In this document: in pieces, positions 7,413 to 13,373 of the stretch | How positions within the stretch are numbered: the first letter of the stretch is position 1 | Layout of the letters: each line of letters opens with the position of its first letter | DNA from: Vulgatibacter incomptus | GTDB lineage: Bacteria; Myxococcota; Myxococcia; Myxococcales; Vulgatibacteraceae | Direction: 5' to 3' | DNA length: 64,000 nucleotides | Assembly: GCF_001263175.1 (NCBI RefSeq) | Contig: NZ_CP012332.1 | Location: 1,795,501-1,859,500 of the forward strand | The notes under the pieces: generated by a model | The model's input: only the letters and a program-made list of their open reading frames with translations | Databases searched by the model: none | Told to the model about the DNA's origin: nothing | Program-made: the position numbers and the translations under genes

Positions 7413-9101
7413 TCAACTAAAGATGGACCTGAGCATTGGGCCGATCTCCTCAAACACCGAATCATACTCCGCCACAGACAGGACTTCATACTTTCTCTCC
7501 AACTCAATTCGCAGTCCACCGAAATCCACGTCGCAATCATCGACAAGTCCCATGATAAGCTGAGAGTCCTTGGGTCTATTTCGCTGAATAAAACTCAGCA
7601 TTGACCTCAGATTCTCAGGATCCTGCTCCTGCTGATTGACGGTGTCAATAACGACAGGAAAGAACGAGTGACTCTCTTTTTCCCTTATCATCTTCAGAAT
7701 TGAAAACACGTACGCAAGAACCAGGCGCGGCCCGTCGCTACCGGTGCCAGAAACAGAGCCGGCAACGCTCTTGTACGTGTGCTCGGGGACCGAGTGGACA
7801 TTGAGCTCGAACAGGTGACTACGCATGTGCTCCAGATACCGTTCATTCAGCTTCCTCTGTCGCTTAGTATCAGTAAGAGCATTCCGTTCGAGTGTCGCTT
7901 GGCGAAGGCCCTCCTCGATCTCTGTCACCATTGTCTGAAGCACCGAAAGATCTTCGGTGATTATAGTTTGAACCTCGCGACGTCCCTCGTTGCGGATTAA
8001 CTCCTGTAGCGTCACCTCCCCTTGTTTGGCCGAAAGCAGGGCCATTGTCTCTTCGAAAATGGACCGATGGGAGTCAAGATTCGACTGAATTGAGATTCGC
8101 TCCTTTTCGATGCCATCGAGATCAATTTCCAACTGCTCTTTAAGCTGAATGCACCGGTCTTCGTCAATCGCGATAGAAAAAAGCTCGACGAAGCCATTGT
8201 CGTGCTCAACTCCGCAGGTAGGACAGGCTATGGTCTCTGGCAACCTTGCGGAATACTCAAAATCACGATGAAGCTCGGCCTGCGAAACCTCCAGCATCTG
8301 CTGTTGCGTCCGAATTGCCGTCGCTCGCAACTCGCAATCAACCAGTTGATTTCTGAACTCTTCCTCCTTTGTCTTGATTTCGTTACATCGGGACAAGAGA
8401 TCTTGAATCTCTGCCCTATACTCATCAAGATTGACGTTGAAGCTTCCGACCCTCAACCGAACGCCAACCTGAGACTGTATGCCTTGTAGCGCATCTCGCT
8501 TTTGTCGAGGCTCTTCAACAAGGGAGTTCAATCGCGCGATCTCGCCGTTGGCTTCATAGTATTCATCAGGCTTGAGTCCCGAATGATACTGCGCGACTTG
8601 GACGCGAGGGTTCCGGAACTGGTTGAGGTTCGCGAACGAATTCCAGGGAGCTCCCCAGCCCGTATCCTGATCGATATAGAACGGCAGAAAGAGAAAGGCG
8701 GGCGTGGCGCCGAGCGGCCTTTTCGATTGGTCGATCAACTGGAGGTTGAAGTTGAACGCTTTTGCGATGAATGGTGCAAGTCCAGCCGTCACCGACTTAA
8801 AACGGCCCAAAAACTGCATGTCGCCAGAAAACAATCCAAACGTCGACTTACTCCGAACGATCGCATACGAGAGTCCGTCGATGTCGAATTTGAGCATGGC
8901 AATTGGATCGGCCATCTTCCACTTGTTGCTGATTTTTCCTGGCTCTGCACCCAGCGCCCAGTAGAGTGACTTAATCAGTGACGACTTACCGGTGTCGTTC
9001 TTCCCTGTCAGGAGCGTCGCGCTTGGGTGGAAGCTCACTCGGCGCGCCTTTTTTTCCACCATCGAGAGGAGGCTGAGCTCGCGGAACTTGCAGTCTTTCA
9101 T
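7413..9101 (-). CDS. lmuB: Lamassu-like LmuB, SMC/Rad50-like ATPase
   Basis: A 562-residue ATPase of SMC/Rad50 type. Walker A is TGKNDTGKSS at about 32-41. A long charged, coiled-coil-like middle is interrupted by CPTCG at about 293-297, which fits a Rad50-like zinc hook. Near the C-terminus, FFPVVIDTVNQQEQD (about 480-494) is the Walker B region in the form seen in LmuB-type proteins, and SGTGSDGPRLVLAYV is the likely ABC signature. It overlaps the stop of the nuclease gene by four bases (ATGA). In Lamassu, LmuB is thought to sense aberrant DNA ends and license the LmuA nuclease, causing abortive infection. GC is lower than the neighbours, suggesting transfer. Confidence 0.85.
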   Translation of the reverse strand: MKDCKFRELSLLSMVEKKARRVSFHPSATLLTGKNDTGKSSLIKSLYWALGAEPGKISNKWKMADPIAMLKFDIDGLSYAIVRSKSTFGLFSGDMQFLGRFKSVTAGLAPFIAKAFNFNLQLIDQSKRPLGATPAFLFLPFYIDQDTGWGAPWNSFANLNQFRNPRVQVAQYHSGLKPDEYYEANGEIARLNSLVEEPRQKRDALQGIQSQVGVRLRVGSFNVNLDEYRAEIQDLLSRCNEIKTKEEEFRNQLVDCELRATAIRTQQQMLEVSQAELHRDFEYSARLPETIACPTCGVEHDNGFVELFSIAIDEDRCIQLKEQLEIDLDGIEKERISIQSNLDSHRSIFEETMALLSAKQGEVTLQELIRNEGRREVQTIITEDLSVLQTMVTEIEEGLRQATLERNALTDTKRQRKLNERYLEHMRSHLFELNVHSVPEHTYKSVAGSVSGTGSDGPRLVLAYVFSILKMIREKESHSFFPVVIDTVNQQEQDPENLRSMLSFIQRNRPKDSQLIMGLVDDCDVDFGGLRIELERKYEVLSVAEYDSVFEEIGPMLRSIFS

Positions 9102-10240
9102 GCGTTTGCTTTCTGAGACTTCTGATTAGAGTCCTTGTTCCCGGCGACCTCAGCATCTTGATAGACCTCAAACAGGATTGCTGCAACGAGCTCCTGATGG
9201 CTGTATCCAGCGGGCTTCTGTGGGAAGTCATTTGCGATTTCGACTGCCATCGCATGTAGCCCAGAGTCCGGGTTTTGGACCTGATGGTTTCCCGCCCGTT
9301 CGCGGATTCTATGGCCCATTTTGCGAAGATCCGGACGATCCGATCTTACTGACAGCGCATAATGGCGCCGCCAGTTTTTTTTAATTATCTCAAGCTGCGC
9401 CCACGGCACCTTCTCCATTTGAAGCTGTTTGATGCATTCCGCCAAGCCATGATCTCGGGTCAAAGGAAGAGAACCGAGAATCATTGCCTCGAACTGTTCC
9501 CGAGTGATCGCGCGGCATCTGAGCAAGTCTTCGAAGGATGAGAAATTGCCTTCATAATTGCTTCGCCGCCTGATTTCCGCCGAGATCGTCTTAAAGAATG
9601 CCACATGGCCTTCCTTGAACCCCCTAGTCTCAGCAAACTTGACGACTCGGCCGAGGGTATGTGTCTCATGGTCCCCAACCGAAAGAACGGTCATTTCGAA
9701 TGATGTCGAATCTTCGGCGGTTGAGATGTCAGCACCCAGTTCGGTCAGCAGTTTAGAGCGGAAGGCGCTTTTCTCGTCGTCGGACAGGCTCAGGAATTGA
9801 ATTTTGGTCAACTCCGTAGCTTTCGATCCGTTAGGAAGCTTAAGGGCGAAAGTCTTGTCGGACACGAAAACGAGGTGTTTCAACTTTTCCTGAAAGCGAA
9901 GTCCGTTAGTAAATAGGCGACCAAGAATCGATGGTTTGAGGCCTTTGGCACCTTTCACTCTCCGAATTAGCCTTGTGTTGGTCCAGGGAGCGCTGCTTGT
10001 TTTGACCTGGTAGAGCGAAATGGTGGACGGACTGGATGACGAGTCGACGACTGCAACATCCTCGAAGTGTTCAAGAAGCAATGCGTAGTCGGCGTCGGCT
10101 GAATGCAGGTCAATGAGAAGGCATAGGGCCCACGATTTCTGGAAGTCGTACCGATTGCTTCCGCGGGCTCCGCTCTGATCGGGCGGGCATTCGCCGACTA
10201 GCAAGTCTTTTAGGTCCCCTACGCTTGGCCCTGAGATCAC
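9098..10240 (-). CDS. lmuA: Lamassu-like LmuA, DUF4297/Cap4-type nuclease
   Basis: A 380-residue protein whose N-terminal 100 residues match the DUF4297/Cap4 endonuclease fold: FQKSWALCLLIDL, an acidic residue in LLLEHFEDV, Asp in VAVVDSS and the QVKTS strand near 78-82 supply PD-(D/E)xK-type residues. The rest is helical and unassigned, as in LmuA proteins where it contacts the SMC partner. The start is GTG at 10240, preceded by GGGGGAGG. It is the first gene of a two-gene operon with the SMC-like ATPase; no LmuC-like third gene is present. Expected role: DNA cleavage on phage sensing. DUF4297 also occurs in CBASS Cap4, but no cyclase gene is nearby. Confidence 0.83.
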   Translation of the reverse strand: MISGPSVGDLKDLLVGECPPDQSGARGSNRYDFQKSWALCLLIDLHSADADYALLLEHFEDVAVVDSSSSPSTISLYQVKTSSAPWTNTRLIRRVKGAKGLKPSILGRLFTNGLRFQEKLKHLVFVSDKTFALKLPNGSKATELTKIQFLSLSDDEKSAFRSKLLTELGADISTAEDSTSFEMTVLSVGDHETHTLGRVVKFAETRGFKEGHVAFFKTISAEIRRRSNYEGNFSSFEDLLRCRAITREQFEAMILGSLPLTRDHGLAECIKQLQMEKVPWAQLEIIKKNWRRHYALSVRSDRPDLRKMGHRIRERAGNHQVQNPDSGLHAMAVEIANDFPQKPAGYSHQELVAAILFEVYQDAEVAGNKDSNQKSQKANA

Positions 10241-10580: not shown

Positions 10581-11948
10581 GCAGGTTGCTGATGAACTCG
10601 ATTCTCGAGCACTCCGCCGCCTGAGCCCCTCCTCGAGCTCAGGGAGGCGGATGATGAAACTGTGGACCTCGCGTGCCTGGGGCGCAGGATGCGGGTCGAG
10701 CCATGAGAGCAACGAGGGCGAGGCCTCGTTGAAGGCGCGCCTCCACTCCAGGATCCTCGCCGTTTTCATGCTGCGCTCCAAATCAGCAGCGACATTCGCA
10801 GCAGGTTGTAGGCCGCTCCTGTGAAGTAGGCGCAGAGTTGGGTGCGGGCGACCCCGCGATAACGCGTCTTCCGGAGCCCTCCGACGGTCTTCATCCAGCC
10901 GAGAATCTCCTCGACCTTTTTCCTGCAACGGTGGCTGTGGAGGTAGCCGACCTGTCGCGCGAGCCGAGCGTCCACGCTGAAGTGCCGGCGCTTGCGAGCC
11001 ACATGCGGCACGACGCCCTCGACGTAGACGTCGCGCACGAAATCAGCGGCGTCGTAGCCTCGATCGGCGCCCAACGTTGCGGGGGAGAACCCGCTCTCCC
11101 GTTGGCGCTTCAGCATCCGAAGTGCCTCGCGGCGCTCGGCGCGGCCGTCCGCCTGCGAGATCGAGATGTCGAGGCAGAGGCCGTTTCGGTTCTCCATGAG
11201 CACGTGCCCGGACAGCGCGAGCTTCGCCTCCTGGCCCATGCCCTTGCGTGCGAGGCGAGCCTCCGGATCGGTGGAGGACTCGTGGGTCTGGTTGCTGCGC
11301 CTTTCCCCGTGGAAATCGACCGGCGGGTTGCCCGGATCGTCCGGCGGCTCGACGTCCTTCCCGCCCTATTTCTTGAAGCTCTTCATGGACGCCCACGCCT
11401 CGATGAGCGTGCCGTCGACAGTGAAGTGCTCGGCGGAGATCAGCCCCGCGTCTTTCGCCTGGCGAACCACGCCCTCGAAGAAGAGGCGCGCGACATCGGC
11501 CTTGATCAGCCGCTCCTTGTTCTTCGAGAAGGTCGAGGCATCGAAGCTCTCCTCGGTCATCCCCATGTCGAGGAAGAATCGGAACATCAGGTCGTAGTCG
11601 AGGCGCTCGCAGAACTGGCGCTCGCTTCGGACACTGAAGAGCGCGATGAGCAGGCACGACTTGAGGATGGTCTCCGGAGGGATCGACGGGCGGCCGGTGC
11701 CGCCGTACATGGACTCGAAGACGGGCGAGAGGCGCTCCAACTCGCGGTCGGCCAGCAGCTTGATCCGTCGGATCGGGTGGTCCTTGGGAACCCGCTGGTC
11801 GGGTCCGACCAGGGTGAGCATCGAGGCCTGTCGTTCAACCTTGCCGCGCATCGCATCCTCCACGAAGAGGCGCGATTCTACGCAGGCGCTCAGGAGCGGT
11901 CGATCCGTCCGGGGGCTCCCGGCGCTGGTTTTTTCAGCAGCCTGCTAG
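10578..11948 (-). mobile_element. IS5-like insertion sequence
   Basis: Element of about 1.37 kb. The ends CTAGCAGGTTGCTGA (10578-10592) and, on the other strand, CTAGCAGGCTGCTGA (11934-11948) form a 15-bp terminal inverted repeat with one mismatch. The outermost CTAG at both sides may be a palindromic 4-bp target duplication instead of part of the element. It inserted into an IS3 orfA remnant on one side and abuts the end of an HNH gene on the other. Its transposase reading frame carries an internal stop. Confidence 0.85.
10766..11851 (-). pseudogene. IS5-type DDE transposase interrupted by an in-frame amber codon
   Basis: One continuous frame encodes a DUF772-type N-terminal half (VPKDHPIRRIKLLADREL, RPSIPPETILKSCLLIALF) and a DDE C-terminal half (GADRGYD, VEEILGWMKTVGGLRK). 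A single TAG at 11366-11368 splits it after SMKSFKK; reading through gives GGKDVEPPDDPGNPPVDFHG, as expected for the family. An AAG-to-TAG change would explain it. ATG at 11851 has GGAGG five bases upstream. As written the element should not move by itself, unless the stop is suppressed or a copy elsewhere acts in trans. Confidence 0.85.
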
Positions 11949-12436
11949 AAGCTTGCGTACAGCCGCCCCACGGCATCGCCTCCCTCGGCGGCGTCGTGTA
12001 GCAGACGGTGGCAGGTGCGGCAGACGGCAACCGCGTTTGGGACCGTATCGCGCCCATCGTTCGCGAGCCAGCGTAGGTGATGGACTTCAAGGTTAGGATC
12101 GCCATCGGCTCGCTTGAACGGTGTAGGGTTGCCGCAGCACTCGCACCTGCCTGCCGCCTCGCGGAGAACCCATGCCAGGACCTGCGGCGAGCGAAGAAGT
12201 TGCTCGGACGGCGGGGCTGCGATCTTCGCCGGGAATGCCTGGCCGATCGACTGCAACGGAGGAGGCGGCTGCTTTAGTAAATCACTCGCCGACGCCGTCA
12301 TCTCGCCGGGATCTAAGGTGGGTTCGGCGCTCTCGGTGGACCAGCCGCGCGTCTCGCCATGGACCTTGATGAAGGGCAGCAGCGCCTGCTGTTTGTTCGA
12401 GTGCGGCTTGTAGCGCTTCACCCACGGCCAGCCCAA
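11945..12436 (-). CDS. HNH endonuclease-like protein, possibly truncated at the N-terminus
   Basis: The C-terminal half has the HNH/zinc arrangement CECCG, LEVHHL, NAVAVCRTCHRLLH, typical of McrA-like HNH nucleases that bind zinc with four Cys and cleave DNA with the His-Asn-His core. The first 70 residues (ending PPPPLQSIGQAF) are not recognised. The only start is TTG at 12436, without a good ribosome-binding site, and an in-frame TAG lies 27 bases further upstream, so the 5' end may be lost. The stop codon lies in the terminal CTAG of the IS5-like element, so the IS may have altered the last residues. A restriction or defence role is plausible but unproven. Confidence 0.65.
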   Translation of the reverse strand: MGWPWVKRYKPHSNKQQALLPFIKVHGETRGWSTESAEPTLDPGEMTASASDLLKQPPPPLQSIGQAFPAKIAAPPSEQLLRSPQVLAWVLREAAGRCECCGNPTPFKRADGDPNLEVHHLRWLANDGRDTVPNAVAVCRTCHRLLHDAAEGGDAVGRLYASF

Positions 12437-12590: not shown

Positions 12591-13373
12591 TCAGAACGGA
12601 AGATCGTCAGATCCGGTCTTGGCGGGGCGTGTATTCCGAAGCTGCAGCCGCTCTTCGTTCGCGATGCTCCACTCGATACCCAACTCGGTTGCAATGTAGC
12701 CCGTATAGTCCTCTCCGCTGCTTGGGTCCTCTCTCCGAACCGACTCCACAAAATGCCGTCGCGCTAGCTTGTGTACGGCGACCGCTGTCGCAGCCTGAGT
12801 GAAACCCAAACGTTCCATCTCGTTCTTGAGATACCACACCGAGATGTCGTCATCTTCAGGCACAATCGAGTTCTGGATGACCAGAACGAGCGCCGCAACC
12901 TCGTGCGCCGAGAGCCCGCTTGTGTCCTTCATGGGCGGGAGGGCCGCAAGATTGTCCCTGTTCTGCTGCTGCGTCTTGAGAGATTCTAACCGCGTTTCGA
13001 TCTGCTTTTCGAGAGCATCGAAGTCACTCGCGGACTGCCCGGAGTACGCGATTACCCTGCGATGCTGGATATCGAAAGGGTAGTGCGGATACGCCCCTTC
13101 TTCGCAAACGATCACCACGTCCTTTCGAGCGGCAAGCGCGAACCCCAGCTCGAACCAGACGTTTGGGTTCATCTGCGTCACGTCGGCAAGGCACACGTCA
13201 CTCGTTCGGATCTGCTCCTCGATGGCAGTGATGGGAATCGTCACCGAGGGGTCGTTGTCAACTCGGTAGGCGTCAAAACCGGCGTTCTCTATCGCAGGCT
13301 TGAAGGTTTCTCTGAAGCGGCGATCAAACTTGCCCCCCTTGTCGAAGGGCTGGATCACAAAGCACTGTGGCAC
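12591..13373 (-). CDS. Deoxyribosyltransferase/TIR-like nucleotide-binding protein with C-terminal helical domain
   Basis: A 260-residue protein. The N-terminal 140 residues begin MPQCFVIQPFDKGGKFDRRF and carry ITAIEEQIRTSDVCLADVT followed by NPNVWFELGFALA, the Glu/Asp and N-x-x-x-E-x-G-x-A pattern of nucleoside 2-deoxyribosyltransferase-like and TIR-like folds often used as sensors or NAD-consuming effectors in bacterial immunity. The C-terminal half (ALVLVIQNSIVPEDD onward) looks like a winged-helix domain. GTG at 13373 has GGAGC upstream. It lies between HNH and GIY-YIG-like genes in the defence island. Enzyme activity and ligand cannot be told from sequence; a regulatory nucleotide-binding role is an alternative. 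Confidence 0.6.
   Translation of the reverse strand: MPQCFVIQPFDKGGKFDRRFRETFKPAIENAGFDAYRVDNDPSVTIPITAIEEQIRTSDVCLADVTQMNPNVWFELGFALAARKDVVIVCEEGAYPHYPFDIQHRRVIAYSGQSASDFDALEKQIETRLESLKTQQQNRDNLAALPPMKDTSGLSAHEVAALVLVIQNSIVPEDDDISVWYLKNEMERLGFTQAATAVAVHKLARRHFVESVRREDPSSGEDYTGYIATELGIEWSIANEERLQLRNTRPAKTGSDDLPF

What the first reader, a model, noticed from the sequence alone, without database searches (positions are those of the whole stretch)
7413..10240. Two-gene Lamassu-like defence operon without LmuC
A DUF4297/Cap4-type nuclease (QVKTS strand) is translationally coupled (ATGA) to an SMC-like ATPase with Walker A, CPTCG zinc hook and the VIDTVNQQEQD Walker B form. This fits Lamassu LmuA-LmuB. 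There is no third LmuC-like gene, and the hook is unusually early (residue ~293 of 562), so the coiled coil is short. The operon is of clearly lower GC.
Basis: partly seen in the sequence, partly recalled or inferred. Interest (0 to 1): 0.7.

Follow-up and report, generated by a model that had tools for sequence, protein, structure and literature searches.

The report
Ordinary two-gene Lamassu defence operon
This is a normal, horizontally acquired copy of the already known two-gene form of the bacterial antiphage system Lamassu (a DNA-cutting enzyme plus an SMC/Rad50-like DNA sensor), so the missing third gene and short coiled coil are typical of its type and not unusual.

Summary
In detail: on the minus strand, a GTG-start 380-aa gene (10240-9098) overlaps by ATGA a 562-aa gene (9101-7413), with 51.8% GC against 66.2% for the window. 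The 380-aa protein is a Cap4/DUF4297 nuclease matching PADLOC LmuA models (1e-67); the 562-aa protein matches PADLOC LmuB models over its full length (5e-184). Walker A, the CPTCG zinc hook at residue 293 and the QQEQD Walker B form are present. The genome has a single Cap4 nuclease and no detectable SMODS cyclase, so CBASS is not supported. In all 29 relatives where the junction could be read, LmuA lies directly upstream of LmuB (gap -4 to about 110 bases, usually under 60), leaving no room for LmuC. Their zinc hook lies near residue 293 in all but a few hook-less members. A two-component LmuAB-DNA complex with a 562-residue LmuB is already in the PDB (9ux7), separate from the entry titled 'type II Lamassu, LmuACB' (9uxh). 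Verdict: new member of a known kind; low interest.

The parts
9098..10240 (-). lmuA: Cap4/DUF4297-type dsDNA endonuclease effector, 380 aa, GTG start
   Evidence: PF14130 3e-32; PADLOC LmuA PDLC00238 9.6e-68; invariant D61, Q78, K80 in 15 LmuA proteins; AlphaFold model pLDDT 85.7 matches LmuA 9ux7_C, 9hr5 and Cap4 6wam
7413..9101 (-). lmuB: Rad50/SMC-like ABC ATPase with zinc hook, 562 aa
   Evidence: PADLOC LmuB PDLC00249 5e-184 over 1-560 of 562; Walker A 33-40, CPTCG 293-297, Walker B-like VIDTVNQQEQD 484-494; model matches LmuB of the LmuAB-DNA complex 9ux7_A, E 3.7e-20
9098..9101 (-). ATGA start/stop overlap joining lmuA and lmuB
   Evidence: the same overlap in L002, L004, L005, L006, L016, L017, L019, L027, L032, L036

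Best explanation
A two-gene Lamassu (LmuAB; the kind without LmuC) acquired by horizontal transfer. Inferred mechanism, from what is known for the family: an LmuB dimer (ABC heads plus a short coiled coil closed by a zinc hook) holds LmuA inactive, binds a DNA end or structure made during phage or plasmid replication, and releases or activates LmuA. LmuA then oligomerises and cuts DNA without telling host from invader, giving abortive infection. Shown here: gene identity, order, intact motifs, predicted folds. Inferred: sensing, activation, cell death.
For: LmuB and LmuA profile matches over nearly full length; Cap4 nuclease domain; LmuA directly next to LmuB in all 29 relatives whose junction could be read, in Myxococcota, Pseudomonadota, Campylobacterota, Bacillota and viral contigs; conserved Walker A, hook, Walker B form and D/QxK nuclease residues; solved LmuAB-DNA complex as best structural match of LmuB, with LmuA also matching that entry; the review PMC10586767 states that LmuC is lacking in some systems, that LmuB is short with a CPxCG hook in many homologues, and that its Walker B Glu is generally replaced by Gln.
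Against: Nothing specific. Identity to the solved members is low (LmuB 18%, LmuA 14% in the structural alignments), no activity was tested, and the operon's expression is unknown.
Confidence: 0.96

Rival explanations
1. A CBASS effector (Cap4) activated by a cyclic nucleotide, with an unrelated SMC-like neighbour.
For: The nuclease domain is the Cap4 family and its fold also matches CBASS Cap4 structures.
Against: No SMODS cyclase in the genome; Pfam finds no SAVED domain; the C-terminal part matches LmuA profiles to residue 361; LmuB is the fixed partner in relatives.
Confidence: 0.01
2. A three-gene Lamassu (LmuACB) that has lost LmuC, or whose LmuC lies elsewhere.
For: Many Lamassu systems have LmuC.
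Against: All relatives with a readable junction are also two-gene, and a two-component LmuAB-DNA structure exists. The LmuB is closer to 9ux7 (LmuAB) than to LmuB of LmuACB complexes.
Confidence: 0.02
3. A decaying island remnant, no longer active, next to a broken IS.
For: The neighbouring transposase is split into two frames.
Against: Both genes are full length and keep all conserved motifs.
Confidence: 0.05

Closest known systems
Two-component Lamassu LmuAB (PDB 9ux7/9ux8; PADLOC PDLC00249 and PDLC00238)
   Same: Two proteins, LmuA nuclease and a LmuB of exactly 562 aa; same domain order; full-length profile match
   Different: Sequence only: about 18% (LmuB) and 14% (LmuA) identity in structural alignment to the solved one
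Three-component Lamassu LmuACB / DdmABC (PDB 9hqu, 9hqx, 9uxh; V. cholerae DdmABC)
   Same: Cap4-type LmuA; Rad50-like LmuB
   Different: Those have LmuC and a longer LmuB (about 630-660 aa in 9hqu, 9hqx, 9uxh); this operon has neither
CBASS Cap4 (PDB 6wam, 6vm6)
   Same: Nuclease domain family and fold
   Different: No SAVED domain match, no SMODS cyclase in the genome

Membership tests
Lamassu (two-gene LmuAB form) | LmuB: Rad50/SMC-like ABC ATPase matching LmuB profiles | tested here: met
   PDLC00249 5e-184, 13 LmuB models below 1e-20
Lamassu (two-gene LmuAB form) | LmuA effector directly next to LmuB | tested here: met
   PDLC00238 9.6e-68; ATGA overlap
Lamassu (two-gene LmuAB form) | No middle gene LmuC | tested here: met
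   4-base overlap leaves no space; same in relatives
Lamassu (two-gene LmuAB form) | Fold of LmuA and LmuB | tested here: met
   Foldseek: 9ux7_A 3.7e-20 (rank 1), 9ux7_C 1.6e-6 (rank 2)
Lamassu (two-gene LmuAB form) | Anti-phage or anti-plasmid activity by abortive infection | not testable with these tools
   Needs an experiment
Lamassu LmuACB | LmuC present in the operon | tested here: not met
CBASS with Cap4 | CD-NTase cyclase encoded nearby | tested here: not met
   No SMODS domain in the genome at E <= 0.1; other cyclase families not searched
CBASS with Cap4 | SAVED domain in the nuclease | tested here: not met
   Pfam finds only Cap4_nuclease 23-227

The most novel reading that the evidence does not exclude
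A divergent LmuAB lineage whose Walker B (VIDTVNQQEQD, where most relatives have VIDSP, VIDTP or VIDAP) or whose divergent LmuA C-terminal part gives it a different trigger or activation than the solved LmuAB.
Probability: 0.05. Interest if true: 0.35.

Novelty: new member of a known kind. Interest (0 to 1): 0.1.

Why it matters
It adds one more host lineage, a myxobacterial-order genome, to the two-gene Lamassu. Its main use is as a check that the absence of LmuC and the hook near residue 293 are general features of this type. It opens no new question.

Tried and rejected
CBASS Cap4 was rejected. A hidden third gene beside the operon was looked for in the window and at the LmuA-LmuB junction of the relatives; no conserved one was found. 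Repeats or ends marking an island around the operon: only weak, chance-like pairs. Phmmer of LmuA alone against the PDB found nothing; a profile of 15 relatives found 9ux7_C and Hachiman 8zue. A scan of viral contigs with the LmuA alignment failed because it is not conserved enough. Paper searches found mainly reviews; no open paper on the LmuAB structure was found.

Full report
Observation. The operon has 51.8% GC in a 66.2% GC window; its GC3 is 59-61% against 91% in the adjacent histidine kinase and response regulator genes. The window is a piece of a complete 4.35-Mb one-contig genome. By size and GC I take it for Vulgatibacter, order Myxococcales; that naming is from memory and was not tested beyond looking up the taxon.

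Identity. The 380-aa protein carries the Cap4 nuclease domain (PF14130, 3e-32, residues 23-227) and matches PADLOC LmuA models over residues 9-361 (PDLC00238, 9.6e-68). The 562-aa protein matches PADLOC LmuB over residues 1-560 (PDLC00249, 5e-184). In alignments of 15 LmuB and 15 LmuA proteins, N35, G38, K39 and S40 of Walker A and D486 of Walker B are invariant in LmuB, and D61, Q78 and K80 (read as the PD-(D/E)xK-type site) are invariant in LmuA.

Relatives. LmuB relatives were found in three other genomes of the same order (about 38% identity to the window copy), among 195 phylum genomes searched at E <= 1e-60. More came from two metagenome-assembled genomes, 33 plasmid records and 15 viral contigs. 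The patchy occurrence, the low identity within the order and the low GC fit horizontal acquisition. In the 29 relatives whose junction could be read, LmuA lies directly upstream of LmuB with a gap of -4 to about 110 bases, usually under 60; no gene fits between. In L011 the LmuB starts at the end of the record, and in L024 both genes are broken, so those two junctions were left out. The CPxC hook lies near residue 293 in nearly all intact copies. So neither the missing LmuC nor the 'early' hook is unusual.

Structure. AlphaFold2 models (mean pLDDT 85.7 for LmuA and 86.8 for LmuB) show a mixed alpha/beta nuclease core followed by a helical C-terminal part, and an ABC head with two coiled-coil arms (helices within residues 179-286 and 304-408) meeting at the hook. 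The best PDB match of LmuB is 9ux7_A, 'LmuAB-DNA complex' (E 3.7e-20), ahead of LmuB from LmuACB complexes. LmuA matches Hachiman 8zue, 9ux7_C, the Salmonella LmuA tetramer 9hr5 and CBASS Cap4. TM-scores are moderate (0.3-0.5) and rmsd large, as expected where long coiled coils and flexible domains are compared globally. A sequence profile of LmuB finds the same entry at 1.3e-54.

Alternatives. The genome holds one Cap4 nuclease and no SMODS cyclase, so CBASS is not supported. A lost or distant LmuC cannot be fully excluded, because no genome-wide LmuC search was run, but the type as a whole lacks it at the locus.

Mechanism. The review PMC10586767 describes Lamassu as an SMC/Rad50-like sensor with an LmuA effector, LmuC being absent in some systems, a short LmuB with a CPxCG hook in many homologues, and a Walker B Glu-to-Gln change that should slow or stop ATP hydrolysis. 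The sequence here fits each point. PDB titles record LmuACB in a 'nuclease sequestration state' and an LmuA tetramer bound to DNA, so I infer: LmuA held by an LmuB dimer, release on binding a DNA end or structure, LmuA oligomerisation, DNA cutting and cell death. None of these steps was tested here for this operon.

Verdict.

Noticed in passing
window 10766-11863 (-): DDE transposase split into two frames (DUF772 part and DDE_Tnp_1 part), a probably broken insertion sequence just upstream of the operon.
   Followed up: partly
window 12591-13373 (-): 260-aa protein with weak nucleoside deoxyribosyltransferase (PF05014, below cut-off) and PADLOC TIR-effector (1.7e-9) matches; possibly another defence or nucleotide-cleaving gene.
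   Followed up: partly
window 11945-12436 (-): Short HNH protein matching the C-terminal part of a PADLOC type IV restriction model (1.2e-19); may be a truncated or stand-alone HNH endonuclease.
   Followed up: no
L016:4001-5650, L017:4001-5665, L029:3437-5089, L030:750-2402: LmuB relatives of about 549-554 aa, among them Vibrio europaeus and Klebsiella plasmid copies, lack the CPxC zinc hook but keep the two-gene order with LmuA. How they close the coiled coil would be worth a look.
   Followed up: no
L021:4001-8863, L012:4001-5728, L024, L026: Broken LmuB genes on mobile elements: in L021 (Mesorhizobium plasmid) the LmuB match is split by about 3 kb with transposase genes in it; in the others the LmuB reading frame is interrupted.
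   Followed up: no
L022-L036: 15 IMG/VR viral contigs carry a LmuB of this type, all with LmuA found by profile just upstream (split in L024 and L029), so proviruses or phage-like elements may spread it.
   Followed up: partly
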